Shown: positions 311 to 11,143 of the stretch, one piece after another | Position numbering within the stretch: the stretch's first letter is position 1 | Layout of the letters: every line of letters begins with the position of its first letter | Assembly: GCA_027619675.1 (NCBI GenBank) | Contig: JAQCHG010000018.1 | Coordinates: 1 to 11,143, forward strand | Source of the DNA: Cyanobacteriota bacterium | Lineage (GTDB): Bacteria > Cyanobacteriota > Cyanobacteriia > Phormidesmidales > Phormidesmidaceae | DNA: 11,143 bases | Reading direction: 5' to 3' | Program-made: the position numbers and the translations under genes | Notes under the pieces: generated by a model | The model's input: the letters and a program-made list of their open reading frames with translations, nothing else | Databases searched by the model: none | Told to the model about the DNA's origin: nothing

Positions 311-955
311 ATGGTTTCTCACCCTGATCCTGCCGCCCCTCCGGTGCTGCCCGAGTTGTCCCCCAAGGCGGAGGTCATCTTGGCTGCCGCCACCCAGGTG
401 TTTTTGTCGTCGGGCTATGACGGCACCAGCATGGATCGGGTGGCAGCGGCGGCGGGGGGATCTAAACACACCATTTACCACCACTTTGCCGACAAGCAGG
501 GGTTGTTTTCTGCCCTGATTGAGCGGTTGGTATTGCGGCGATTTTACAGCGCCTTTGGCCCTGAAGAGTCGGCCCAAGCTCCCCCCCAGGTGCGATTACG
601 CCACCTGGCGGATGTGCTGCTGAGCCTCCAGGACAGCGCCGACTACATCGACTTTTTGCGCCTGCTCATTGCTGAGTCCAAGCAGTTTCCAGAATTGGCC
701 CAACTCTACACCGAGGCGGTGGTGCGCCGGGGCCACGACTGCTTTGTGAACTACGTGGCCACCCATCCCGATCTGCATTTTGCTGACCCCCCAGCGATCG
801 CCCACATTTTCTTTGGTGCCCTGATCGCCTATATCCTCAGCCAGGAGGTGCTGCAAGCCAAGCAGGTCATCCCCCTAGAGGCCGCCATCCTGCGGGACAC
901 CCTGGTGACCATGATTGTGGCCTACGGTCAGGGAGAAGCTGCCCTACCCCAGTAG
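311..955 (+). CDS. TetR/AcrR-family transcriptional regulator
   Basis: A 214-residue protein, the usual length for the family. The N-terminal DNA-binding domain is clear: helix 1 at about residues 19-33 (AEVILAAATQVFLSSG), then GYDGTSMDRVAAAAGGSK and the recognition helix ending in the family hallmark TIYHHFADKQGLF (54-66). The remaining helical part is the ligand and dimer domain; it resembles the AefR-like C-terminal domain in FLRLLIAESKQFPEL, but the ligand cannot be predicted. The frame is open upstream to a GTG at 233, but that start would put the operator (222-237) and the 13-bp duplication inside the gene and add a Pro-rich low-complexity stretch. The ATG at 311 is therefore preferred, although no clear Shine-Dalgarno precedes it. 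It probably represses itself and the divergent efflux adaptor. It converges on the FAD oxidase gene with a 23-bp gap and no evident terminator. Confidence 0.9.
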   Translation: MVSHPDPAAPPVLPELSPKAEVILAAATQVFLSSGYDGTSMDRVAAAAGGSKHTIYHHFADKQGLFSALIERLVLRRFYSAFGPEESAQAPPQVRLRHLADVLLSLQDSADYIDFLRLLIAESKQFPELAQLYTEAVVRRGHDCFVNYVATHPDLHFADPPAIAHIFFGALIAYILSQEVLQAKQVIPLEAAILRDTLVTMIVAYGQGEAALPQ

Positions 956-978: not shown

Positions 979-2112
979 CTACCCCAAAACCTGGGCAATC
1001 ACCTCTTCCGCTAGCCCAAAGGCCAGGGTCATCCCGGCACCACTCAAGGCATTCACGAGGGTAACCCCCGTTTCGGGTGCCGCGATAAACTCCGTTTGGC
1101 CCGGCAGTTTGGCATAGATGCCGTGCCAGGTTTCAGCGATGGTTAAGGATGGCACGCGGGCAAACCGCTGCAAATAATCCAAAATGAACTGATTGACATC
1201 GGCGCGATCGAAGGGGTCAAAGGTAAGGCCGTATTCATGGGAGTCCCCTAGCACCAGCTCCCCCAGGCCGTTTTGAGACATCATCACGTGGATGTGCCAG
1301 GCCACCGCAAAGGGCAGTTCGCGCTGCAAACGCTGCCTCAAGGTGCCCAGGGAAGGACAGTCGGCAAAGGCGGCGTAATGGGTGAGGGTGAGGCCACCGC
1401 AGAGGGCTGGTCCCAGCCGCCACTGATCCGCCTGGGGGCCAGTGCGCATCATTTGAAGTTTGGACTTCGTGATGCCACTGCTGCGATAGATCTGGGGATA
1501 GAGGGTTTCAAAGTCGGCCCCAGAACAGACAAAGATATGGTCGGCTTGCCAACGCTCCCCATTCACGGTCAAATGCGGTGACTCAATGGCGGTGACGGTT
1601 TGGCCAAACTGAATGTCGATGTCGAAAGCCGCAGCCAGTACCTGGGGCAGGGTCCAGAGGGCTTCGCGGGGATCAACAATCACCTCTGTCTCACTCCACA
1701 GTGCCCCCAACAAGCCCTCGGTCATGGCGGCGGGGCTTTTAGCGGCCACCTCCCCAGGGGTCAAACAATGCACCGTATCGGTGTGGGACTGGTGAGTGGC
1801 AACAAACTCTTCAATGACCGCTAGTTCATCGGCATGGTAAGCCAGGTGTAAGGAACCCACCGGATCGGCAAAAAAGCCGCCTTGATGGGCCATGTCTAGC
1901 CAAATTTGCCGCGATCGCAGCGCCCGATCCCGCAGTGGCCCCAGCGGTTGCCCAATCGGCCAAACCATCCCAAAGTTCCGAATAGAGGCCCCGACGGCCT
2001 TTTCACTGCGCTCAAATACCGTCACCCGATGGCCTTGACGGGCAGCGGCGAGGGCATGGGCCAGGCCAACGATACCCGCGCCAACAATGGCGATTTCAGT
2101 GGAATGGGTCAT
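979..2112 (-). CDS. FAD-dependent amine oxidase of the phosphonate-associated type (TIGR03364-like)
   Basis: A 377-residue protein of the glycine/D-amino-acid oxidase (DAO) fold. The N-terminal Rossmann motif is intact: GAGIVG at residues 11-16 and the ribose-binding Glu34 in VFER. This is followed by GASIRNFGMVWPIGQ (about 41-55), which would lie near the flavin. The C-terminal FAD segment NALSGAGMTLAFGLAEE is also present. There is no signal peptide, so it is cytoplasmic. It is the last gene of a minus-strand run and lies 81 bp after the phosphonatase-like HAD gene. In databases a clade of such oxidases is recurrently linked to PhnX-like hydrolases and is proposed to deaminate 2-aminoethylphosphonate or a methylated or hydroxylated relative to the 2-oxoethylphosphonate that the HAD enzyme cleaves. 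Fold and cofactor are secure. The substrate is inferred from the neighbour; glycine, sarcosine or D-amino-acid oxidation is the alternative. Confidence 0.85.
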   Translation of the reverse strand: MTHSTEIAIVGAGIVGLAHALAAARQGHRVTVFERSEKAVGASIRNFGMVWPIGQPLGPLRDRALRSRQIWLDMAHQGGFFADPVGSLHLAYHADELAVIEEFVATHQSHTDTVHCLTPGEVAAKSPAAMTEGLLGALWSETEVIVDPREALWTLPQVLAAAFDIDIQFGQTVTAIESPHLTVNGERWQADHIFVCSGADFETLYPQIYRSSGITKSKLQMMRTGPQADQWRLGPALCGGLTLTHYAAFADCPSLGTLRQRLQRELPFAVAWHIHVMMSQNGLGELVLGDSHEYGLTFDPFDRADVNQFILDYLQRFARVPSLTIAETWHGIYAKLPGQTEFIAAPETGVTLVNALSGAGMTLAFGLAEEVIAQVLG

Positions 2113-2193
2113 GGGGAGGGATATGGGGCAGCGGATCCAGGGGAGAACCGTTCAAACGGGGCGGGCGCGCCCTCGGGCGGAGGCACTGCCGGG
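2113..2193 (-). other. Palindrome-rich spacer between the HAD and FAD oxidase genes
   Basis: This 81-bp spacer holds compact inverted repeats: CCGTT-2-AACGG at 2148-2159, the 10-bp palindrome GGGCGCGCCC at 2163-2172, and an overlapping GCCC-TC-GGGC at 2169-2178. No T-run follows on the minus strand, so a terminator is not supported. The structures could lower expression of the downstream oxidase or stabilise mRNA ends. No Shine-Dalgarno is seen before the oxidase ATG at 2112. Confidence 0.45.
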
Positions 2194-2928
2194 TCAGGTC
2201 TCCAGCCAAGTCTGCAATTGGATTTGAAAGTCACTTAAGGAGGCGAACAAACCATCGTTGCCGTGGGCAGCCAATTGCGCCTCGGTATGGGTGCCGTTGG
2301 TGACGGCGCAGGTATAGGCGCACCCAGCCTGGCGACCGGCCTGTAAATCTGAAGGGGTATCGCCGATCGCCACCACCCGTTTCGGATCCGTTACCCCCAG
2401 ATAGTACATCCCCTTTTGAATCATGAAGGGGGCAGGGCGACCCTCATTGTTGTGGATCTCGGAGGGGGTCACAGACATCTGAATCAGCGAGTCGGAGCTA
2501 CCCACATAGCGATCGTCCAACCCTTGGTCCCAGCCAAGGCGATGCAGAATGATATCGGTGACTTCCCGATAAAACCCCGTGGTCAGCAGGATGTGGATGC
2601 CTCGGGCGTTTAACCAGTGGAACAAGTCTAAACACCCTGGGGTGGGCACCACTGGCTCAGTGCGGTAATGGTGTTCCAAGATTTCCCGAAAGCGATCGTA
2701 GGAGGCCGTCACCCGTGGACCATAGTCCGGATGCTCTGCCCCCAGGTGTTCTGCCCATAGGGCTTGGAATACCGCCCGTTTAGGCAGCCCCATCATGGCA
2801 TTTACCTGGTCTGGGGCTGCTTGCAGACCCGTTTGTTGAGCTGCCGATGCAAAGCAATGCAGCACCTCATCGTTGTCTTGGACCGTGGTTCCGGCCATAT
2901 CAAAGGCGATGAGCTTAATATCAGCCAT
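2194..2928 (-). CDS. Phosphonatase-like HAD hydrolase (PhnX-related, TIGR03351-like)
   Basis: A 244-residue HAD-superfamily enzyme. The nucleophile motif is FDMAGTTV, with Asp10 as nucleophile and Ala12 where most HAD phosphatases have a second Asp; DxAGT is the signature of phosphonoacetaldehyde hydrolase. MGLPK at 46-50 in the cap domain aligns with MGLLK of PhnX, so Lys50 matches the Schiff-base lysine that activates the aldehyde for C-P cleavage. The Thr motif lies in LLTTGFYRE (114-122). GRPAPFM (163-169) matches the GRPYPWM region of PhnX, and the metal-binding motif is GDTPSDLQAG (from 189). Expected reaction: hydrolysis of a 2-oxoethylphosphonate (phosphonoacetaldehyde or relative) to an aldehyde and phosphate in the cytoplasm. 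The frame extends 27 codons upstream, but the ATG at 2928 starts right before the HAD core strand, has GGGA about 9 bases ahead and avoids overlap with the Nudix gene ending at 2946. No PhnW aminotransferase is in the window. Confidence 0.9.
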   Translation of the reverse strand: MADIKLIAFDMAGTTVQDNDEVLHCFASAAQQTGLQAAPDQVNAMMGLPKRAVFQALWAEHLGAEHPDYGPRVTASYDRFREILEHHYRTEPVVPTPGCLDLFHWLNARGIHILLTTGFYREVTDIILHRLGWDQGLDDRYVGSSDSLIQMSVTPSEIHNNEGRPAPFMIQKGMYYLGVTDPKRVVAIGDTPSDLQAGRQAGCAYTCAVTNGTHTEAQLAAHGNDGLFASLSDFQIQLQTWLET

Positions 2929-2945
2929 GGCAGTGTTTCCCAGGG

Positions 2946-3392
2946 TTAACGCGCATCTCCGGGCACCCGTCCGGCAGCTATCAAGGCCTCCCAGGTGCGG
3001 CGAGAGCATTGTTCACGGGACAGGTCTGCAATCGCGTGCCACTGAATGCCCTGGGGACCAATCTCTTCCACATCAGTGGGGGTAAAGGTGGTGGGCCGAG
3101 GGGAGGCTGAGCAGCGGTACACCAAGCCGAGGGTATGGAGTTGGCCATCGTCACAGGGGTAAAATCCTTCCACAACCGTGAGCAATGACGCAATGGCAAA
3201 GTCTTGAATACCCGTCTCTTCCAGCACTTCCCGTCGTAGCCCCGTCACCACATCTTCAGCCGGATCTAATCCTCCCCCTGGCAAATCCCAGCAGTCTGGC
3301 TCTGGTGGTGTCATTTGATGCAGGAGCAACACCTGATCCTGGTCGATAAATAAGGCCAGAACACTGACCCGCAGTTGGGTTTCGGTAGTCAT
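2946..3392 (-). CDS. Nudix hydrolase
   Basis: A 148-residue Nudix-fold protein. The complete Nudix box occupies residues 40-62: Gly40, Glu46, then REVLEETGI from Arg54, matching GX5EX7REUXEEXGU without deviation, so the Mg-binding glutamates are present and the enzyme should be active. The N-terminal strand (LRVSVLALFIDQDQVLLLHQ) and WDLPGGGLDP before the box are typical of the nucleoside-diphosphate-X hydrolase fold. The substrate cannot be read from the sequence; family members cleave NDP-sugars, NTPs, ADP-ribose and similar compounds. The frame runs open far upstream, but this is a shadow of the oppF-like gene, and the ATG at 3392 gives the normal Nudix length. It lies 17 bp before the HAD gene and starts the phosphonate-related trio. 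It could process a nucleotide-activated intermediate or be a passenger; the sequence does not decide. Confidence 0.88.
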   Translation of the reverse strand: MTTETQLRVSVLALFIDQDQVLLLHQMTPPEPDCWDLPGGGLDPAEDVVTGLRREVLEETGIQDFAIASLLTVVEGFYPCDDGQLHTLGLVYRCSASPRPTTFTPTDVEEIGPQGIQWHAIADLSREQCSRRTWEALIAAGRVPGDAR

Positions 3393-3410
3393 AGGGGGGT
3401 GGGGACCGAT

Positions 3411-3433
3411 GTACACCAACCTCAATGGTGTAC
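3411..3433 (-). repeat. Perfect hairpin in the leader of the Nudix gene
   Basis: GTACACC (3411-3417) and GGTGTAC (3427-3433) form a perfect 7-bp inverted repeat with a 9-base loop, ending 18 bases before the Nudix start codon. It could be a leader hairpin affecting translation or an operator for an unknown dimeric regulator. Nothing resembling a known riboswitch is seen. Confidence 0.5.
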
Positions 3434-3439
3434 CGCAAA

Positions 3440-3459
3440 GGTTTAAAGGGGAGGTTAAG
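3440..3459 (-). promoter_or_regulatory. Possible Pho-box elements upstream of the Nudix/HAD/oxidase operon
   Basis: On the minus strand CTTAACCT (3459 to 3452) is an exact match to the cyanobacterial Pho-box 8-mer as generally described. TTTAAACC (3447 to 3440) follows after 4 bases and matches 6 of 8 positions. The expected spacing is 3, and no good third repeat is seen, so this is a weak candidate. The position, 48-67 bases before the Nudix start and downstream of a possible terminator, fits a separate promoter for the catabolic genes. Confidence 0.35.
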
Positions 3460-3510
3460 GCTCGGCCTTTGGCCACCCAGGGACTGTCATCAATTAGCGC
3501 CAGAACCCTT

Positions 3511-3537
3511 GTTTTAAAACGGCTACAGCCTCTAGCC
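3511..3537 (-). terminator. Possible intrinsic terminator after the ABC ATPase gene
   Basis: Read on the minus strand, GGCTA (3537-3533) and TAGCC (3525-3521) form a 5-bp stem with a 7-base loop, followed directly by GTTTTAAAAC. The stem is short and the T-tract is only four long, so termination would be weak. It lies about 50 bases after the oppF-like stop codon, in the right place to end the transporter operon. Confidence 0.4.
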
Positions 3538-3586
3538 ACAGCATAGAGGGGGGCGTGGAGAGATGGGATAGGGGGCATTGTCTGGC

Positions 3587-4597
3587 TCAGGATGCCGCTG
3601 CCATCTCTGGCTGATCTGCAACCCGATGGCAGGCCGCCCCATGGCTGACAGACAACTGGGTCCAATCCGGTTTGATCGACTTGCAGCCTGCCTCCGCCAC
3701 GGGACAGCGGGTGTGGAACCGACAGCCTGAGGGGGGGGTAATCGGGGAGGGAATTTCTCCGGCGAGGCGGATGCGATCGCGATCGGCATCGGGATCCAAA
3801 GGCGGAATGGCTGACAATAGGGCCTGGGTGTAGGGGTGACTGGGGCGGGCAAAGAGTTCTTGGGTGGGGGCAATCTCGACGATTTCCCCCAGGTACATCA
3901 CCGCCACCACATCGCAAAAGTGGGCCACCACCGACAGATCATGGCTGATGAACATAAATGCCAGGTTCATGTCCTGCTGGAGGGCCTTGAGCAGGTTCAA
4001 AATATTGGCCTGAATGGACACATCCAACGCCGCCACCGCTTCATCCGCCACCAAGAAGCTGGGTCCCGAAACCAGGGCACGGGCGATCGCAATGCGCTGC
4101 CGCTGCCCCCCAGAAAAGGCATGGGGAAAGCGGCGCAGATGTTCCAAATTCAGCCGACAGGTTGCCGCCACTTCCCGCACCCGGCGATCCGTCTCTTGTC
4201 GATTACGGGTGAGGCCCATGGCTTCCAAAGGCTCAGCAATAATGTCCCGTACCGTCATGCGGGGCGAGAGGGAGGCATAGGGATCTTGGAAGATCATCTG
4301 GGCATGGCGACGCAGCAGTTGGGTGCTGCTGCCCTGCATCTGAGCCACATTCAAGCCCTGTTCCCCCACCCTGAGGGTGACCTCTCCGCTCGTGATCGGA
4401 GCCGCCTTGAGGAGGGCACGACCGACGGTAGTTTTGCCAGAACCGGATTCCCCCACCAGACCAAAGACCTGACCAGGGAAGATATCAAAACTGACCCCGT
4501 CCACGGCCCGGACCACCTGAGGTTTGCCCTTCAGGAAACCGCCCCCGATGGGGTAATGCACCTTGAGATTCCGGACAGAAACCAGCGGCTGCGTCAT
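3587..4597 (-). CDS. Peptide-type ABC transporter ATPase, OppF/DppF-like
   Basis: A 336-residue ATPase of the oligopeptide/nickel class. The nucleotide-binding motifs are in order: Walker A GESGSGKT (49-56), Q-loop Q104 in IFQDPYASLSP, signature SGGQRQR (162-168), Walker B VADEAVAALD (183-192) and switch His219 in ISHDLSVV. The C-terminal extension carries the oligopeptide-transporter Cys motif (SGCRFHTRCPVAEAGC), which separates this class from other importers. It would pair with the preceding ATPase to power the two permeases on the cytoplasmic side. Its start overlaps the stop of the upstream ATPase gene by 4 bases (ATGA), indicating translational coupling. One oddity is DEAVAALD in place of the usual DEPxSALD; the catalytic Glu186 and the D-loop are intact, so activity is expected. 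A 194-bp gap follows, with a weak terminator candidate. Confidence 0.93.
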   Translation of the reverse strand: MTQPLVSVRNLKVHYPIGGGFLKGKPQVVRAVDGVSFDIFPGQVFGLVGESGSGKTTVGRALLKAAPITSGEVTLRVGEQGLNVAQMQGSSTQLLRRHAQMIFQDPYASLSPRMTVRDIIAEPLEAMGLTRNRQETDRRVREVAATCRLNLEHLRRFPHAFSGGQRQRIAIARALVSGPSFLVADEAVAALDVSIQANILNLLKALQQDMNLAFMFISHDLSVVAHFCDVVAVMYLGEIVEIAPTQELFARPSHPYTQALLSAIPPLDPDADRDRIRLAGEIPSPITPPSGCRFHTRCPVAEAGCKSIKPDWTQLSVSHGAACHRVADQPEMAAAS

Positions 4598-5622
4598 CGG
4601 TGGACCTCCTCCAGCACTTTTTCATCCAATAGGTGGCAGGCGGCCCGGTGATGGGGATCGGTCTCCGCTGCGACGGGCACATCGGTGCGGCAGCGGAGGC
4701 GATCGGGGGCATGGGGGCAACGGGGGTGAAACACGCAACCCTGGGGCCGTTCTAGGGGGCTGGGAATATCGCCGGGGATGGGTAGCAGCGGTTGATCCAA
4801 CCTATCAATGCGGGGAATCGCCTTAATCAGTCCTTGGGTGTAGGGGTGCTGGGGGTCCCGAATGATGGTGCGCACCGGCCCCGTTTCCATCGCCCTCCCC
4901 AGGTACATCACCAGCACATCGTCGGCAATTTGAGAAATTACCGCCAGGTCATGGGAGATGAAGAGGATGGCCATGCCAAACTCGTTTTGCAGTTCCGCCA
5001 GCAAATCTAAAATTTGCGCCTGAATGGTCACATCCAGGGCGGTGGTGGGCTCATCTGCAATCAGCACCGCTGGCCGCATCACCAGGGCGGAGGCGATCAT
5101 CGCCCGCTGGCGCATCCCCCCCGACAGTTGAAAGGCATATTGATCAATCCGCAACTCCGGGTTAGTCATGCCCACCCGCTCTAGCATGTCGATCGCCTGC
5201 TGACGGGCCTGGGCTCGGCTAACGTTACGGTGTAGCCGAATCCCCTCAATCATTTGATTGCCGATGGTGTATAGGGGGGAAAACGCCGCCGAGGGTTCCT
5301 GGAAAATCATGGCGATTTCCCCCCCCCGAATCTGATCTAGGGTTTTGCTGCGGCGATCTAGCTTGGCAATATCGATGTATTTGCCCTGCTTGGTTTGGTA
5401 GAGAATGCTGGAATTAGGGGCGATCGCGGCATTCGATGGCAGCAACTGCATCAGGGATTTGGTTGACACCGATTTACCAGAACCCGACTCCCCCACAATC
5501 CCCAGGGTTTTACCCGGCTCCAACCCAAAAGAGAGATCGTCAACGGCGGTGACCAGCCCCTCATCGGTGCTGAAGCTGATGGATAGGTTGGAGACGCGCA
5601 ATACCGCAGAGTCTTCAGCCAT
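4594..5622 (-). CDS. Peptide-type ABC transporter ATPase, OppD/DppD-like
   Basis: A 342-residue ATPase of the oligopeptide class. Walker A is GESGSGKS (44-51), the Q-loop is [11 protein letters not shown] (Q108), the signature is LSGGMRQR (166-173), Walker B is [11 protein letters not shown], and the switch histidine lies in FISHDLAVI. The C-terminal extension has the class Cys motif ([17 protein letters not shown]). The [11 protein letters not shown] variant of the signature region is typical of the DppD/OppD half; the other half has QRQRIAIARAL. It forms a heterodimer with the downstream ATPase in the usual architecture of these importers. The ATG at 5622 lies 9 bp after the permease stop, with AGGAGG present in that short junction as Shine-Dalgarno, so the start is well supported. 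Confidence 0.93.
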
Positions 5623-5631
5623 AACGACCTC

Positions 5632-6771
5632 CTAACGTTGAATACCGGAATAGGGGTCGGCAGCATCCCGCAAGCCATCCCCCAGCAAGGTGAACGAGAG
5701 CACCGCCACCACAAAGAAAATCAGCGGAATAAAGAACCAGGGCGTCAACTGGATCGCTTGCACCGTGGTCATTTCTTGGAGCAACACCCCCCAAGACATG
5801 GTGGGTCGCCGCAGCCCTAGCCCCACGATGGATAGGGCCGTCTCATCCAAAATCCGATAGGGGAAGTTAATCACCAGCTCCACGATGATGTAGCTGGCAA
5901 AACCGGGCAGCAGGTGCCGGGTGACGATGCGCCAGCCATTGGCCCCCGCCAGTCGAGCCGCCAGCACATATTCCTCTTCCCGCGAAGCCAATAAATAGGA
6001 CCGGATGCGGCGGGCTAGGGTGGGCCAGTTCACCAAGCCCAGCACTAGGGTCATGGCGAAATACACCTGTTGGTTTGTCCAGTCGCGCGGAAACATCGCC
6101 GTCAGCGCCATGTACAAGGGAATGGGCGGAATCACCCGCACCAAATCCGTAAACGCCTGAATGGTGCTATCCACCCAGCCGCCCACATATCCCGCTACGC
6201 CCCCGATGAACAGGCTGAGGATAAAGGAGATCAAAATCCCCAAAAAGCCAATGGTGAGGGAGGTGCGGGTGGCAAACATGACCCGACTGAAGAGGTCCAA
6301 CCCGTTGGAGTCTGTGCCAAACAGGTGTACTTTGCCCCGCTCAACGCCAAATAGGTGGAGATCGCTGGGGATCACGCCCAACAGCTTGTATTCACCCGCC
6401 CGATGGAAAAACTGTAGATTCCGCCGGATGGGCTTGCCGTTTTCCATTAGTGCCTCCACCTGATACTGCTTCTCGATGACGCTGTAGCTGCTGGTCATCT
6501 GTTGAACGAAGGGCCATAATTGGCAGCCTTCGCTATCGCAAAAGCGGATCAATTGGGGGGGACCAGCGGTGTAGTCGGGGTTGCGATCGTCCGCCAGACC
6601 AGAATAGGGGGCGATAAACTCTGCAAACAGGGCGATCCCAATAAATAGACTCAGCACTGCACCGCCCAGGGCGGCTAACCGATTGGCCTTAAACCGCGAC
6701 CAAAACAGTTGCCATTGGGACGCGGTGTAATAATCTTCCTTCCGGGTCTTTCGTTTAAATGGATTGGCCAT
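5632..6771 (-). CDS. Peptide-type ABC transporter permease, DppC/OppC-like
   Basis: A 379-residue inner-membrane permease. A basic N-terminus is followed by the class-specific first helix at about residues 32-53, introduced by FWSRFKANRLAALGG. A long extracytoplasmic loop of roughly 100 residues follows, then HLFGTDSNGLDLFSRVMFATRTSL, the conserved GTDxxGRDxxSR region, here with Leu for Arg. Five further hydrophobic segments follow. The cytoplasmic coupling (EAA) loop is EEYVLAARLAGANGW, and the C-terminus is LLGDGLRDAADPYSG, typical of the family. The long loop after helix 1 exceeds that of short DppC proteins and fits a binding protein of unusual size. The gene starts 2 bp after the upstream permease stop and is followed 9 bp later by the first ATPase, so all four transporter genes are one transcription unit. 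Confidence 0.92.
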   Translation of the reverse strand: MANPFKRKTRKEDYYTASQWQLFWSRFKANRLAALGGAVLSLFIGIALFAEFIAPYSGLADDRNPDYTAGPPQLIRFCDSEGCQLWPFVQQMTSSYSVIEKQYQVEALMENGKPIRRNLQFFHRAGEYKLLGVIPSDLHLFGVERGKVHLFGTDSNGLDLFSRVMFATRTSLTIGFLGILISFILSLFIGGVAGYVGGWVDSTIQAFTDLVRVIPPIPLYMALTAMFPRDWTNQQVYFAMTLVLGLVNWPTLARRIRSYLLASREEEYVLAARLAGANGWRIVTRHLLPGFASYIIVELVINFPYRILDETALSIVGLGLRRPTMSWGVLLQEMTTVQAIQLTPWFFIPLIFFVVAVLSFTLLGDGLRDAADPYSGIQR

Positions 6772-6773
6772 GA

Positions 6774-7795
6774 CTATCGTCCTTTTAACCGCACCCGTGG
6801 ATCAAGCACTGCCATCAAGACATCCGCCAGGAAGTTGGCGGCAATGATCACGGTGGTGACGCAAACCAAAATCCCTGCCGCCGTGTTTTGGTCAGCATCC
6901 AAAAAGGCCAGCAATAGCTCTTGCCCCAGCTCCCCTAGCACCAAAATCGAGGCGACAATGGGCAATTCGTTAAAGGAGAAAAGTCAAATCCAATGGTAGA
7001 AACAATGGGCATGACCGCATGGCGGGCGGGATATTTAATCAACATCGGCCAGCCAGAAAGGCCCCGAGCCTGGGCAGCGGTGACATAGAGTTTGCCCATT
7101 TCATCTTTCATCAACCCCCGCATGGTTTGTAGTTGAAAGGCGGTCGTAGACCAGCCCAGCACCAGCAGCGGGATATAGGCATGACCCAGAAAATCCAGAA
7201 ATTTTGCCAATGAAAAGGGTTGGCCGCGAAACTCTTGGGACACCAGCCCCGTGACATCTAAGTTAAAGACAAAGGCGTTGAGCATTAACAGCACCAGGGC
7301 GATCGCGAAGTTGGGCAACGCTAACCCCAAATAGGAGATCAGAGTCACCACCCCGTCCGCCCATCCCGATTTTCGGGTGGCCACCCAAATCCCCACCGGA
7401 ATAGCAATCAGGTAGGAAAAAACCATCGCCCCAAGCACGAGGACAAAGGTGTAGAGAAACTTGTCGCCAATCAGGGCATTAACGGATGTTTCCACCCGAA
7501 AAGCGGGACCAAAGTCGAATCGGGTCATCACATGCCAGAGCCATTCCCCATAGCGCACCAAAAAGGGGCGATCGAGTCCTAGCTGGGCGCGCACCTGGTC
7601 GATTTCGGTTTGGGTGATGGTCACCCCAGTGCCGGAATATTTGCGAAACAATTCCCGTTCAGCATAGTCACCGGGCATCAGTTCGATCAGCCCGTAAATC
7701 ATGAACGAGACCGCTAATAGGGTCAGCGCTGCAATCAGCAATCGCCCTAAAAGAAACCGCCAAAAGGCTTCATTGGTTGCCGCGTTAGACGCCAT
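6774..7795 (-). pseudogene. Peptide-type ABC transporter permease, DppB/OppB-like, interrupted by a frameshift
   Basis: The frame starting at the ATG at 7795 encodes a clear DppB-type permease: FLLGRLLIAALTLLAVSFMIYGLIELMPGD at the N-terminus, several membrane segments, and the coupling loop YVTAAQARGLSGWPML. After STIGFDF (codons ending near 6980) the similarity stops, and a short unrelated tail ends at 6935. The missing C-terminus lies in the next frame from about 6974 to 6774: FNELPIVASILVLGELG, a last hydrophobic helix, and the family ending VLDPRVRLKGR. Joined, the protein would be about 339 residues, normal for DppB. The net change equals a 1-base loss or a 2-base gain within TTTTCTCCTTT; a duplicated TC would explain it. 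The rest of the gene is well preserved and the operon spacing is intact, so the break is very recent or a sequencing error. Without repair, the last helix is lost and the importer should fail. Confidence 0.85.
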
Positions 7796-7813
7796 AGCCC
7801 CCAGTTTGATACA

Positions 7814-7834
7814 TGCCCCTAGAGATGTAGGGCA
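7814..7834 (-). repeat. Leader hairpin before the permease operon
   Basis: TGCCCCTA (7814-7821) and TAGGGCA (7828-7834) pair over seven positions with one bulged C and a 6-base loop. It lies between the Pho-box-like array and the permease start at 7795, so it would be in the 5' leader of the operon mRNA or would overlap the promoter. No T-run follows, so it is not a terminator. Confidence 0.4.
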
Positions 7835-7837
7835 AAG

Positions 7838-7867
7838 ACGTAAAGCCCCGGTTAACTCAAGGTTAGG
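7838..7867 (-). promoter_or_regulatory. Candidate Pho box (three 8-mers at 11-bp period) for the transporter operon
   Basis: Read on the minus strand, three 8-mers separated by exactly 3 bases are CCTAACCT (7867-7860), GTTAACCG (7856-7849) and CTTTACGT (7845-7838). Against the cyanobacterial SphR/PhoB pattern PyTTAAPyPy(T/A) they match 7, 6 and 6 of 8 positions. The array ends 42 bases before the permease start, a normal place for an activator site next to a promoter. A convincing -10 element was not found. Because the flanking genes handle phosphorus compounds, phosphate-starvation control is a sensible inference. Confidence 0.55.
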
Positions 7868-7889
7868 GGGGCACTGAAGCGTGATCCCA

Positions 7890-7917
7890 AGCGATGGCTA
7901 AGCCGCTTGCCATCGCT
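7890..7917. repeat. Perfect 9-bp inverted repeat in the divergent region
   Basis: AGCGATGGC (7890-7898) and GCCATCGCT (7909-7917) are perfect inverted complements. The 10-base loop TAAGCCGCTT can itself add AAG/CTT pairs, giving a long hairpin. No T-run follows on either strand, so it is unlikely to be a terminator. It may be an operator, an RNA structure, or one copy of a dispersed palindromic repeat; only a genome-wide search would tell. Confidence 0.6.
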
Positions 7918-8124
7918 GCTAGGAGCCATATCTGACGGGCAATGGAACCAGGCAACAGGGAAAATTGATATGGGCTTAAAGATTCATAAAGTTGTCGTGG
8001 GTCTCATGCCAAATCCCTGTGAGGCTGCGCTCAACCAAAGGCTTATCCCCCTTACCCCTCAAAGGGTCATGAGTGGCAATCTCAAATGGAATGGGTATAA
8101 CGTTCAGAGTTAACGATAGCCGAC

Positions 8125-8154
8125 CTTAATTGCTCGGAAAACTATTCTTAATTG
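8125..8154 (+). promoter_or_regulatory. Candidate Pho box upstream of the phosphodiesterase gene
   Basis: CTTAATTG occurs at 8125-8132 and again, identically, at 8147-8154. The 22-bp distance is exactly two 11-bp Pho-box periods. Each matches 7 of 8 positions of PyTTAAPyPy(T/A). The 8-mer in the middle register, GGAAAACT (8136-8143), matches only 4 of 8, so the array is imperfect. A possible -10 with an ATAA core is CATAAC at 8169-8174, 14 bases after the array, which is a little far. The array lies 74 bases before the ATG at 8229 and would drive the phosphodiesterase and binding-protein genes. Confidence 0.45.
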
Positions 8155-8228
8155 ATTTCCAGTTTTTTCATAACAGGTTTTTAGTCCGCACTTGCTAATG
8201 TCCTTCCTGGATTTTGTTCAGGGCGGCT

Positions 8229-9089
8229 ATGGCGGAGCGCGTCATACTGGTGATTTTGGATGGGCTGCGGTTCGATGTGGCCCAGACCTCTATGGGCTAT
8301 TTAGCCCACTGGGTTGAAACCGCCCAAGCCAGCCTCTATCGGGTGCAGGCGGAATTGCCCACCTTATCCCGTCCCCTATATGAGGTTCTGCTCACGGGCA
8401 CTCCGGTTTCAATGAATGGCATTGGGGCCAATGATGTGGTGCGCCTGTCTCACCAACGCAGTGTGTTTCATCAAGCCACCGCTCAAGGGTTGACCACAGC
8501 CGCCGCCGCTTATAGCTGGTTTAGCGAACTGTATAATCGCGCCCCCTTCGATCCGATCAGCGATCGCGACCAGCACGATGTCACCCTACCCATCCAGCAC
8601 GGTCGCTTCTACTGGGCAGACAGCTATCCCGACTCCCATTTGTTGGCCGACGCCGAGATCCTACGGCAGCAGCACACCCCCGACTTTCTGCTGGTACATC
8701 CCATGGGCATCGACCATGCGGGGCATTGCTATGGAGGCAACAGTGCAGAATATCGCAACTGCGCCATCGCCATGGACTCGCTGCTGTCCCACTATCTGCC
8801 CCGGTGGCGAGGAGCGGGCTACACGATTTTGATTACCGCTGACCACGGCATGAATGCCGACGGCATGCACGGTGGCAACCTGCCGGATGTGCGCGAAGTG
8901 CCCCTGTTTTGCTTTGGTCCCCAATTTGAGCCTGGAATCCAGCAGCCTGCCCTAGCTCAACGGGCGATCGCCCCCCTGATTTGCGACCTGCTCGGGGTGC
9001 CCCCAGCGGCAGCCATGTCGCCCCCCCTGATCTCGGGTTACCCCTCCCAAGCTTCCCCTTCACACATTGCGGCTCCAGCCCCTACCTAG
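8229..9089 (+). CDS. Cytoplasmic phosphodiesterase/phosphonate-ester hydrolase of the alkaline phosphatase superfamily
   Basis: A 286-residue protein of the type I phosphodiesterase/nucleotide pyrophosphatase group. All elements of the two-metal site are visible: Asp11 in VILDGLR, nucleophile Thr45 in LPTLSRP, Asp162 and His166 in GIDHAGH, Asp205-His206 in ITADHGM, and His214 in MHGG. The superfamily includes nucleotide pyrophosphatases, phosphonate monoester hydrolases and phosphonoacetate hydrolase PhnA; the exact substrate cannot be read off. There is no signal peptide or membrane helix, so it acts in the cytoplasm, on imported substrate. The ATG at 8229 is chosen over an in-frame TTG at 8214 because AGGGCGG begins 9 bases ahead and the first strand follows at once. 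It is about as short as the fold allows. It is followed 71 bp later by the binding-protein gene, presumably in one operon, and is divergent from the permeases. It may release an aminophosphonate from an ester for the FAD and HAD enzymes. Confidence 0.85.
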   Translation: MAERVILVILDGLRFDVAQTSMGYLAHWVETAQASLYRVQAELPTLSRPLYEVLLTGTPVSMNGIGANDVVRLSHQRSVFHQATAQGLTTAAAAYSWFSELYNRAPFDPISDRDQHDVTLPIQHGRFYWADSYPDSHLLADAEILRQQHTPDFLLVHPMGIDHAGHCYGGNSAEYRNCAIAMDSLLSHYLPRWRGAGYTILITADHGMNADGMHGGNLPDVREVPLFCFGPQFEPGIQQPALAQRAIAPLICDLLGVPPAAAMSPPLISGYPSQASPSHIAAPAPT

Positions 9090-9097
9090 GGCCATGG

Positions 9098-9118
9098 CTG
9101 CTGAGCGGGTCTCAGCAG
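9098..9118 (+). repeat. Strong hairpin between the phosphodiesterase and binding-protein genes
   Basis: CTGCTGAG (9098-9105) and CTCAGCAG (9111-9118) form a perfect 8-bp stem with a 5-base loop, followed by a pyrimidine stretch (TCTATCTTCTCC) without a true T-run. It starts 9 bases after the stop of the phosphodiesterase gene. It may be a weak terminator or an mRNA-stabilising stem that lets the binding protein be made in excess, as is common for importer operons. Confidence 0.6.
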
Positions 9119-9160
9119 TCTATCTTCTCCATTCACAGACAAGGATCTCTGAGGAAAGCT

Positions 9161-11143
9161 ATGACACTTGCGCGGAAACGACTTGGATTTTTGGCGACCT
9201 CCTTGGCCGCAACCCTAGCCCTGGTAAGCTGTAGCACCAGCTCCGACAGCCCCAGGGCTGGTGGCGGTGGCGGCAATGCCGAGGGCAGTTGTCCGGCCAT
9301 GACCGTCGCAGACGATCAAGGAATTGCAGCCGGGGCATATCCCCAACAGTATGACCTCGCGGAATATCAAACAGTGGCGGGTTGCGAGATGACCTTCGTG
9401 GCCAACCCCGAAATTGAGGAACTGAACGGGCAAATTGCTGGTAACGCTGACCTGCCTCCCCTGGCAGAGCGCCTACCTGCTGAGCCTCTAGTGGTGGTGC
9501 CCTATGAAGCAGTAGGGGTTCATGGCGGCACCCTGAATGGGTTGTCCAAAGCCACCGAGTCCGGGACTTCCGACCTGCTGTCCGTCCGTCACGTCAACCT
9601 GTTCCGGTTCTCCGACGACCTGCAAACCATCGTCCCCAACGTGGCACGGGACTTTGAGTGGAACGATGATTTCACAGTTCTGACCGTGTACCTGCGGGAA
9701 GGCCACAAGTGGTCCGATGGCCAGCCCTTCACCGCTGAAGACATCGTCTTCTGGTACAACAATGTCCTCGCCGATGAAACCCTCTATTCCGAGGGCATCC
9801 CCGATCGCTTCTTGGTGGGCGGTGAACCCATGCAGGTAGAAGCCGTTGATGAAACCACCGTTACCTTTACCTTGGCCCAGCCCAAGCCCGGTTTAACAGC
9901 CCTGTTCGCCACCGACTACGCCCAACCCTTCCTGCCCAAGCATTTCCTCGGGCAGTACCATCCCGCTGTGGATGACAACGCCGAAGCCAACGCCACGGAA
10001 GCCGGCTTCGAGAGTTGGGATGAAGCCTTCAATTTTTACTACGGCAGCAGCGACTGGAAGGATGTGCCCTCTCCCCTGCTTAAGGATCCTGCTAAGGCAG
10101 AGAGCCTAGAGCGGGCGGTGATGCCTACCCTGGAATCCCACATTCTGATTTCCGACACGGCTGAAGGTCGCCAACTGGTGGCCAATCCCTACTTCCACCA
10201 AGTAGACACCACTGGCCAGCAGCTCCCCTACATCAGCCGGATTGATGAACTCTATGTGCCAGAGGTTGAAGTCCAAAACCTCAAGCTCTCCAATGGGGAA
10301 GTGGCCTACAAATCCCAGGCGGTGTTTGGTGAAGATCTGCCGGTGTTGCAGCAAAACGAGGCCCAAGGCAACTACGTGGTAGATGCCGTGCCCACCGTGG
10401 GTGAATCCATGGTGGTGTATTCCTTCAACGTCAATCACAAGGATGAAGGACTGCGGGAGATCTTCGGCGACCTCCGCTTCCGTCAGGCGGTCAGCCATGC
10501 CCTCAATCGAGAAGAGATCAATGAGTTGGTCTTCTTTGGCCTCGGCACCCCAGCCCAGTACACCGCCGTTGATCCCAATACGGTTAACTTCGTCACGGAG
10601 GAGCAGAAGACTTACCTAATCGAGTTCGATACCGACAAGGCGAATGAACTGCTGGATGATATGGGGTTGGTGGATGCCGATGGCGATGGCACCCGCGATC
10701 GCCTCGATGGCTCCCCCCTGGTCATTAACCTACAGTTCGCCACCCAAGGCGGCCCAGTGAAGATGCACGAGCTATTTGCCCAGTATCTGGATGATGTCGG
10801 GCTCAACGTGCAGCTCAAGGAAGTCACCTCTGACGAATATCGCGCCAGCCAAGCAGCCAACGACCTAGACATCATGACCTGGACCAAGGCCTACACGTCC
10901 GCCTTTTTAGCCGGGTCCCGCGAGCCTTTGTTCCCGCCCTTTGGCGATTACTTTAGCCTCACCAATGGCCACCTCTGGGCCAAATACATTGAGACCGATG
11001 GGGCCGAAGGTGTGGAGCCCCCCGAGTGGGTGACAGAATTGGATGCCAAGTCCATTGAGTACCAGTCCTACACCTTGGGAAGCCCTGAATCAGATGCCCT
11101 AGGTAAGGAGATTGTGGATCTGCTGCAATCTGAGCTGCTGTTC
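9161..11143 (+). CDS. Lipoprotein substrate-binding protein of a peptide-type ABC importer (SBP_bac_5), 3' end outside the window
   Basis: Open for 661 codons with no stop before the window ends. The ATG at 9161 has GAGGA 5 bases ahead. A lipoprotein signal is clear: MTLARKR, a hydrophobic core, and lipobox LVSC with Cys24, then a flexible linker with five glycines (34-38). The family 5 signature TVYLREGHKWSDGQPFTAED with FWYNNV follows, and further on FRQAVSHALNREEI, the conserved hinge-region motif. Residues 505-516 (DADGDGTRDRLD) have Asp at positions 1, 3, 5, 9 and 12 of an EF-hand-like loop and may bind calcium. The protein is longer than the usual 500-600 residues of this class. It would deliver substrate to the divergently encoded permeases. 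The class carries peptides, nickel, sugars and other solutes; the gene neighbourhood suggests an organophosphorus ligand, but nothing in the sequence proves that. Confidence 0.92.
   Translation, partial: MTLARKRLGFLATSLAATLALVSCSTSSDSPRAGGGGGNAEGSCPAMTVADDQGIAAGAYPQQYDLAEYQTVAGCEMTFVANPEIEELNGQIAGNADLPPLAERLPAEPLVVVPYEAVGVHGGTLNGLSKATESGTSDLLSVRHVNLFRFSDDLQTIVPNVARDFEWNDDFTVLTVYLREGHKWSDGQPFTAEDIVFWYNNVLADETLYSEGIPDRFLVGGEPMQVEAVDETTVTFTLAQPKPGLTALFATDYAQPFLPKHFLGQYHPAVDDNAEANATEAGFESWDEAFNFYYGSSDWKDVPSPLLKDPAKAESLERAVMPTLESHILISDTAEGRQLVANPYFHQVDTTGQQLPYISRIDELYVPEVEVQNLKLSNGEVAYKSQAVFGEDLPVLQQNEAQGNYVVDAVPTVGESMVVYSFNVNHKDEGLREIFGDLRFRQAVSHALNREEINELVFFGLGTPAQYTAVDPNTVNFVTEEQKTYLIEFDTDKANELLDDMGLVDADGDGTRDRLDGSPLVINLQFATQGGPVKMHELFAQYLDDVGLNVQLKEVTSDEYRASQAANDLDIMTWTKAYTSAFLAGSREPLFPPFGDYFSLTNGHLWAKYIETDGAEGVEPPEWVTELDAKSIEYQSYTLGSPESDALGKEIVDLLQSELLF

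What the first reader, a model, noticed from the sequence alone, without database searches (positions are those of the whole stretch)
979..11143. Possible new organophosphorus scavenging system: peptide-type importer with phosphodiesterase, FAD amine oxidase and phosphonatase-like HAD
Seen: a full set of peptide-type ABC components (binding protein, two permeases, two ATPases) clustered with a cytoplasmic alkaline-phosphatase-superfamily diesterase, an FAD amine oxidase, a PhnX-like HAD enzyme and a Nudix hydrolase. Known: the oxidase/PhnX-like pair occurs in aminophosphonate catabolism, usually discussed with PhnCDE-type transport. Inferred: the importer takes up a conjugated aminophosphonate (for example a phosphonolipid head group, phosphonate ester or phosphonopeptide). 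The diesterase then frees the aminophosphonate, the oxidase deaminates it and the HAD enzyme releases phosphate. The combination would extend phosphonate use to larger conjugates.
Basis: partly seen in the sequence, partly recalled or inferred. Interest (0 to 1): 0.85.

Follow-up and report, generated by a model that had tools for sequence, protein, structure and literature searches.

The report
Conjugated-aminophosphonate uptake and breakdown cluster
A cyanobacterial gene cluster joins a peptide-type importer and a phosphodiesterase to known kinds of enzymes that pull phosphate out of aminophosphonates, which suggests that the cell eats aminophosphonates still attached to a sugar or glycerol; the substrate has not been tested.

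Summary
The genes are as described, with two flaws: one permease frame is broken and the binding protein runs off the contig. The oxidase is a PbfD-family enzyme (TIGR03364, over cut-off); such enzymes oxidise N-methyl-AEP, and one also AEP, to phosphonoacetaldehyde (2023). The HAD keeps phosphonatase's nucleophile and Schiff-base lysine but scores below both curated cut-offs. HAD and oxidase are neighbours in 21 of 22 cyanobacterial loci, beside varying transporters.

Less expected: the cassette NPP-type phosphodiesterase + Opp-type importer (74-88% identical) also sits beside the pair in Vacuolonema, with a PhnF regulator. The two oxidases lie in separate well-supported clades. A 56% relative of the binding protein in Rhodobacteraceae SC52 is followed by PhnW, PhnX and a sulfatase-like hydrolase. 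Against: a second relative (Ruegeria) has no phn genes beside it; none of the 22 loci has this importer; diesterase orthologs in Pseudomonas, Vibrio, Aeromonas and Enterococcus have no PbfD or PhnX nearby.

Best reading: uptake of an esterified aminophosphonate, release by the diesterase, then PbfD and HAD. Linkage is supported; the substrate is inferred. New variant of a known kind.

The parts
979..2112 (-). PbfD-family FAD oxidase (AEP / N-methyl-AEP oxidative deamination by homology)
   Evidence: TIGR03364 448.5 bits over cut-off 285.1; 60-78% identical relatives in 22 cyanobacterial loci
2194..2928 (-). PhnX-like HAD (phosphonoacetaldehyde hydrolase-like)
   Evidence: TIGR03351 167.1 bits, below cut-off 218.9; Asp10 kept in 69 of 69 and Lys50 in 68 of 69 aligned rows; Lys aligned with the Schiff-base Lys of solved phosphonatase
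2946..3392 (-). Nudix hydrolase, role in the cluster unclear
   Evidence: PF00293 60.5 bits; a close relative lies within the fetched flanks in 4 of 22 cyanobacterial PbfD loci; none seen in L131
3587..4597 (-). Opp-type importer ATPase (F-like)
   Evidence: PF00005 + PF08352; 84.5% identical to the copy in L131
4594..5622 (-). Opp-type importer ATPase (D-like)
   Evidence: PF00005 + PF08352; 82.0% identical to the copy in L131
5632..6771 (-). Opp-type importer permease (C-like)
   Evidence: PF00528 + PF12911; 87.9% identical to the copy in L131
6935..7795 (-). Opp-type importer permease (B-like), N-terminal part; frame broken near 6,995
   Evidence: PF00528 + PF19300; three-frame translation; 88.2% over 272 residues to an intact 346-aa relative in L131
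8229..9089 (+). NPP-type two-metal phosphodiesterase (alkaline phosphatase superfamily), no room for a signal peptide
9161..11143 (+). Opp-type (SBP_bac_5) binding lipoprotein, cut by the contig end
   Evidence: PF00496 188.4 bits; full-length 706-aa twin P0121; 84.3% identical to the copy in L131

Best explanation
The cluster lets a cyanobacterium use an aminophosphonate that is still esterified to another molecule (most likely a glycerol- or sugar-linked 2-aminoethylphosphonate or its N-methyl form). Inferred: the lipoprotein and the two-permease, two-ATPase importer bring the conjugate in. Inferred: the cytoplasmic NPP-type enzyme hydrolyses the phosphonate ester and frees the aminophosphonate. 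By family: the PbfD oxidase converts it to phosphonoacetaldehyde with release of ammonia or methylamine. By homology and conserved residues: the HAD enzyme cleaves the C-P bond to acetaldehyde and phosphate. The PbfD-HAD core is conserved in cyanobacteria while the transporter around it is exchanged; this Opp + diesterase cassette is the version for bulky substrates.
For: PbfD membership over cut-off, with PbfD enzymes shown elsewhere to make phosphonoacetaldehyde (PMC10590968). HAD active-site residues kept. HAD and oxidase on one strand with starts 0.7-1.1 kb apart in 21 of 22 cyanobacterial loci (these are the cyanobacterial ones of the 80 kept out of 374). PhnS2/T2/U2 over cut-off beside the pair in L036, and a trio similar to L036's in 6 of the 12 oxidase-bearing stretches. 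Phn-HD oxygenase over cut-off downstream in both loci scanned, L043 and L053. The cassette is 74-88% identical while PbfD is 65% and HAD 59%, and the two PbfDs sit in separate starred clades, so the association was made twice, or the cassette moved. In G493 remnants of diesterase and binding protein lie side by side near a PhnF gene. A relative of the importer (binding protein 56%) in Rhodobacteraceae SC52 is followed by PhnW (479.7 bits, cut-off 400.8), PhnX (331.9, cut-off 220) and a sulfatase-like hydrolase. Full-length diesterase in 10 of 388 class genomes, 8 of which also hold PbfD (42 of 388 overall), Fisher p 4e-7, relatedness ignored. Predicted fold is that of NPP phosphodiesterases.
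Confidence: 0.5

Rival explanations
1. General organophosphodiester scavenging: importer and diesterase take up and cut ordinary phosphodiesters such as glycerophosphoethanolamine or sugar phosphodiesters, and the PbfD-HAD pair next door is an independent phosphorus-acquisition route grouped for co-regulation.
Against: A relative of the importer precedes PhnW-PhnX in SC52. PhnF regulators sit beside the diesterase in L131 and beside its remnant in L161. The diesterase co-occurs with PbfD in 8 of 10 genomes.
Confidence: 0.25
2. The Opp importer takes up free AEP or N-methyl-AEP (or an aminophosphonate peptide cut by ordinary peptidases), simply replacing PhnS2/T2/U2; the diesterase does another job.
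For: The same PbfD-HAD core is served by PhnS2/T2/U2-like, by a second distantly PhnS2/T2-like and by Opp-type transporters in different cyanobacteria.
Against: None of the 22 stretches shows the PhnS2/T2/U2-like trio and a diesterase ORF together.
Confidence: 0.13
3. An ordinary peptide or oligosaccharide importer that happens to lie next to an aminophosphonate pair.
For: Opp-type proteins are common (three more PF00496 proteins in this genome; distant Opp-like ORFs also lie in the stretches L141 and L142). The closest solved relatives of the binding protein include the pectin-binding SPH1118 and a protein named oligopeptide-binding.
Against: The same genes lie together in a different order in L131 with a separately branching PbfD, and a relative lies beside PhnW-PhnX in SC52.
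Confidence: 0.12

Closest known systems
PbfD-phnX aminophosphonate catabolic clusters (Zangelmi et al. 2023, PMC10590968; outline, section 8, first part of the discussion and passages read)
   Same: TIGR03364 oxidase associated with a phosphonatase gene, often without PhnW; [quoted passage not shown]
   Different: No NPP-type diesterase and no Opp-type importer appear in what I read
PhnS2/T2/U2 and AepXVW/AepSTU transporters of 2-aminoethylphosphonate (PMC8316502, passages)
   Same: ABC import feeding AEP breakdown; a PhnS2/T2/U2 set lies beside the same PbfD-HAD pair in relatives
   Different: AepX and AepS carry PF13343; the window's binding protein is PF00496 with two Opp permeases and two Opp ATPases
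Agrocinopine (Acc) uptake and cleavage in Agrobacterium (PMC4526662, passages; PMC7356202, start of abstract in a listing)
   Same: Cluster C binding protein and ABC importer bring in a sugar phosphodiester that a phosphodiesterase (AccF) cuts inside: the same logic
   Different: Sugar phosphate diester, not phosphonate; whether AccF is related to the window enzyme was not tested here
Phosphonate monoester hydrolases (PEH/PehA) postulated to free phosphonates from marine polysaccharides (PMC5649143, passages)
   Same: Alkaline phosphatase superfamily enzyme ahead of phosphonate breakdown
   Different: PEH is the sulfatase-like kind and is discussed there with C-P lyase; the window enzyme is a compact cytoplasmic NPP-type protein

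Membership tests
PbfD (TIGR03364 oxidases) | Score over the curated cut-off of TIGR03364 | tested here: met
   448.5 bits against 285.1
PbfD (TIGR03364 oxidases) | Gene next to a phosphonatase-type HAD | tested here: met
   Neighbours in the window and in 21 of 22 cyanobacterial loci
PbfD (TIGR03364 oxidases) | Oxidises N-methyl-AEP (and AEP in some members) | not testable with these tools
   Needs the purified enzyme
PhnX phosphonatase (TIGR01422) / PhnX-like (TIGR03351) | Curated score cut-offs | tested here: not met
   92.5 against 220 and 167.1 against 218.9; the four relatives scanned (L131, L053, L036, L062) also score below both
PhnX phosphonatase (TIGR01422) / PhnX-like (TIGR03351) | DxAGT nucleophile motif and Schiff-base lysine of the cap | tested here: met
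   Alignment with solved phosphonatases; Asp in 69 of 69, Lys in 68 of 69 rows
PhnS2/T2/U2 AEP transporter | PhnS2-type binding protein and PhnU2 permease | tested here: not met
   Window binding protein is PF00496 and matches no PhnS model; no PhnU2 over cut-off in the held 61.7%-complete genome
Opp/Dpp-type (cluster C) ABC importers | PF00496 binding protein, OppB/OppC permeases, two ATPases with oligo_HPY | tested here: met
   OppB-type frame broken
Opp/Dpp-type (cluster C) ABC importers | Curated cut-offs of named peptide or nickel importers | tested here: not met
   Among the matches listed (for the ATPases the best 25 only) none of the five proteins reaches a cut-off
Opp/Dpp-type (cluster C) ABC importers | Binds peptides | not testable with these tools
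   Needs binding assays
NPP phosphodiesterases (PF01663) | NPP fold | tested here: met
NPP phosphodiesterases (PF01663) | Two-metal site and catalytic nucleophile | tested here: met
   D11, S47, D162, H166, D205, H206, H214 and N68 invariant in 47 sequences and aligned with Xac NPP (weak local scores); the roles of the Xac NPP residues are recalled. The nucleophile is Ser, not Thr
NPP phosphodiesterases (PF01663) | Cleaves phosphodiesters | not testable with these tools
   Needs the purified enzyme
Phosphonoacetate hydrolase PhnA (same superfamily) | PhnA similarity | tested here: inconclusive
   No PhnA model among the NCBIfam matches; PDB PhnA 1ei6 matches only weakly, E 0.017

The most novel reading that the evidence does not exclude
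Bacteria of several phyla have dedicated systems for aminophosphonates that are still tied to glycans or glycerol: an alkaline-phosphatase-superfamily esterase placed ahead of an aminophosphonate pathway. In cyanobacteria it is a cytoplasmic NPP enzyme with an Opp importer; in Rhodobacteraceae SC52 a sulfatase-like enzyme with a related Opp importer and PhnWX; in some Bacteroidota PF01663 enzymes beside PbfD, two of the three scanned carrying PA14 and chitobiase-type domains.
Probability: 0.35. Interest if true: 0.75.

Novelty: new variant of a known kind. Interest (0 to 1): 0.6.

Why it matters
Bacterial phosphonate synthesis largely decorates cell surfaces with molecules such as AEP (PMC6697681, start of abstract in the listing), and phosphonates of high-molecular-weight marine organic matter are ester-bound to polysaccharides (PMC5649143, passages). 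How cells release and take up such bound forms before C-P cleavage is little known; the transporter paper that I looked into (PMC8316502, passages) concerns free AEP. A mobile cassette of importer plus diesterase in front of a characterised kind of oxidase would give a specific, testable route and a gene marker for use of bound aminophosphonates by cyanobacteria.

Tried and rejected
Low-score TIGR03364 matches (367 of 386 phylum genomes) are generic FAD oxidoreductases; only 5 of 386 pass the cut-off there. The class search with the window protein gives 42 of 388 at 1e-60.

A Pho-box-like triplet was sought in seven stretches with a recalled consensus. The best in the window (7838-7867, towards the Opp genes) scores 19 of 24 and 7 of 200 shuffles reach it; one in L131 between PhnF and the diesterase is reached by 6 of 200; the other five by 19 to 200 of 200. 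With seven stretches tried this is not significant. No Rfam match at gathering scores and no tRNA in the window.

A PhnF regulator was sought in the window's genome: none over cut-off, best 32.3 bits; the genome is only 61.7% complete. No PhnU2 over cut-off there either.

In the loci L036-L115, alkaline-phosphatase-superfamily-like ORFs are commoner within 4 kb of PbfD than at 4-9 kb (22 against 8 in 597 and 659 kb). One profile was built from seven of those same loci, many hits are weak (22-88 bits), one weak hit that I checked (L100) matches no Pfam family, and the loci are related, so I use this only as a hint. Strong hits (over 200 bits) within 4 kb: 7 of 58 non-cyanobacterial loci, six of them in the profile. 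PhnA did not show among the 50 rows, which excludes nothing.

Paper searches around this combination listed no paper whose title or abstract start describes it; I did not open every paper listed, and the library lacks most subscription journals and all bioRxiv.

The Fisher test ignores relatedness; 9 of the 10 full-length genomes belong to two families (f1, f5). I left out of the ten the four partial or decayed copies (G609, G612, G493, G498; three of the four hold PbfD) and one weak match (G438, no PbfD). G558 counts as lacking PbfD because its copy is a fragment near the contig edge.
Full report
What is there. The window is a whole 11,143-base contig of an incomplete cyanobacterial genome (61.7% complete); its genus includes a genome (G488) whose contig length, 5,473,176, equals that of Leptolyngbya sp. 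PCC 6406. On the minus strand, in the direction of transcription, lie an OppB-type permease (frame broken near 6,995), an OppC-type permease, two Opp-type ATPases, a Nudix hydrolase, a PhnX-like HAD protein and a FAD oxidase. Divergently, on the plus strand, lie a PF01663 hydrolase and a PF00496 binding lipoprotein that runs off the contig. A 706-residue protein identical to the 661 residues held here suggests that about 45 residues are missing (P0121).

The enzymes. The oxidase scores 448.5 bits on TIGR03364 (cut-off 285.1). That is the family in which PbfD1 is annotated; purified PbfD enzymes oxidise N-methyl-AEP to phosphonoacetaldehyde, and PbfD2 reacts with AEP only four-fold more slowly (PMC10590968; outline, section 8, first part of the discussion and passages read). 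[quoted passage not shown] The HAD protein is below the cut-offs of both phosphonatase models, and so are the four relatives scanned. It aligns with solved phosphonatases with the nucleophile motif and the Schiff-base lysine in place; across 69 aligned rows the Asp is kept in 69 and the Lys in 68. I therefore take the step from AEP or N-methyl-AEP to phosphate as the likely chemistry; it is by homology, not shown here.

The pair is conserved; the transporter is exchanged. The scan kept 80 of 374 loci with relatives of the oxidase; 22 are cyanobacterial (L036-L057). Of these 22, 21 have the HAD gene upstream on the same strand, starts 0.7-1.1 kb apart; L057 (PCC 6406) has none. None of the 22 shows the Opp binding protein or permeases in the flanks held (up to 10 kb, shorter in some), and two (L045, L052) show the diesterase. 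In L036 the transporter beside the pair is PhnS2/T2/U2, all three over cut-off. A trio similar to L036's, one copy with a partial permease, lies next to the pair in 6 of the 12 oxidase-bearing stretches (L141, L162, L164, L166, L167, L168; similarity only, cut-offs tested in L036 alone). The Opp kind is in L131, as in the window. In the remaining two, L142 and L165, none of these sets was seen; L142 has a distant OppB-like ORF (123 bits) and L141 a distant binding-protein ORF (77 bits). The stretches were not a random sample: four were chosen because they hold the diesterase. A Phn-HD phosphonate oxygenase over cut-off follows the oxidase in L043 and L053, the two loci scanned for it.

The Opp cassette. 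Identities to the window are 65% for the oxidase and 59% for the HAD, but 74% for the diesterase and 82-88% for the five importer proteins (OppB over 272 residues only). In a tree of 30 oxidases the window falls in one starred clade (7 rows, 100/99) with PhnS2/T2/U2-type neighbours, and L131 in another (4 rows, 96/93). So the cassette joined this pair twice, or moved, or is old and lost in most relatives; the lower divergence of the cassette favours movement. Gene order also differs. In G493, which groups with L131, fragments of diesterase and binding protein lie side by side near a PhnF gene, while the intact pair sits elsewhere with a PhnS2/T2/U2-like set. In the class sample the binding protein is found in 3 of 388 genomes at 1e-30: own, G496 and the G493 fragment.

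Outside cyanobacteria. A relative of the importer in Rhodobacteraceae bacterium SC52 (binding protein 56%, other parts 49-61%) is followed directly by PhnW (479.7 bits, cut-off 400.8), PhnX (331.9, cut-off 220) and a sulfatase-like hydrolase. This is an independent join of the same importer kind, AEP breakdown and an alkaline-phosphatase-superfamily hydrolase. The only other plasmid record at 1e-100, Ruegeria conchae, has the importer without phn genes. In 7 of 58 non-cyanobacterial loci a strong PF01663-type hit lies within 4 kb of PbfD (profile built partly from these); two of the three scanned carry PA14 and chitobiase-type domains. The diesterase itself has orthologs (47-56%) in Pseudomonas, Vibrio, Aeromonas and Enterococcus plasmid records, in an operon binding protein - diesterase - two permeases - ATPase, with a GntR-like gene in front in three of the four and another HAD-family gene behind in Pseudomonas and Vibrio, without PbfD or PhnX in the stretches fetched. 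That argues for a diesterase acting on imported organophosphorus diesters, of which phosphonate esters may be one kind.

Mechanism. I propose uptake of an esterified aminophosphonate, cytoplasmic release by the diesterase, oxidation by PbfD and C-P cleavage by the HAD. The last two steps rest on family evidence, the first two on linkage and fold. The logic has a known parallel: Agrobacterium imports agrocinopine with a cluster C binding protein and cuts the phosphodiester inside with AccF (PMC4526662 passages). The binding protein's best solved relatives are a putative oligopeptide-binding protein (5ipw) and the pectin-binding SPH1118, with an alpha-galactoside-binding protein next (SPH1118 from abstract starts). 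So 'peptide-type' should not be read as 'peptide-binding', and a sugar-linked ligand is at least as likely (inference).

Verdict. The oxidase-phosphonatase core has been known since 2023; the link to an Opp importer and an NPP-type diesterase did not turn up in the literature searches I ran and is repeated in a second cyanobacterial lineage, with a parallel in SC52. The substrate remains inferred.

Noticed in passing
6775-7795 (-): OppB-type permease frame is broken near 6,995; the C-terminal part continues in another frame. Assembly error or decay; the relative in L131 is intact.
   Followed up: partly
332-955 (+): TetR-type regulator (PF00440, PF14246) at the left end; no relative labelled in the fetched flanks, role unknown.
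   Followed up: no
2946-3392 (-): Nudix hydrolase of one subfamily recurs near PbfD in L043, L048, L053 and L056 (4 of 22 cyanobacterial loci).
   Followed up: partly
L189, L190, L191, L192: Conserved operon of binding protein, NPP-type diesterase, two permeases and an ATPase in Pseudomonas, Enterococcus, Vibrio and Aeromonas (another HAD-family gene behind it in Pseudomonas and Vibrio); 179 of the 199 plasmid records with the diesterase are Enterococcus. I found no description of its function but did not search for one beyond.
   Followed up: partly
L161 (G493 C5 near 6,235,000), L144 (G612), G498 C84 near 58,100: Decayed remnants of the diesterase (in G493 also of the binding protein) in three genomes that keep PbfD-HAD with another transporter: the cassette is being lost.
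   Followed up: partly
L043:11655-12419, L053:11127-11663: Phn-HD (TIGR03276) oxygenase over cut-off downstream of PbfD in two cyanobacterial loci.
   Followed up: yes
L084, L073: PF01663 proteins with PA14 and chitobiase C-terminal domains next to PbfD in Bacteroidota; possibly release of aminophosphonates from glycans.
   Followed up: partly
L132:3710-8886: In G469 the diesterase is followed by a PotABCD-like ABC transporter, while PbfD lies on another contig.
   Followed up: no
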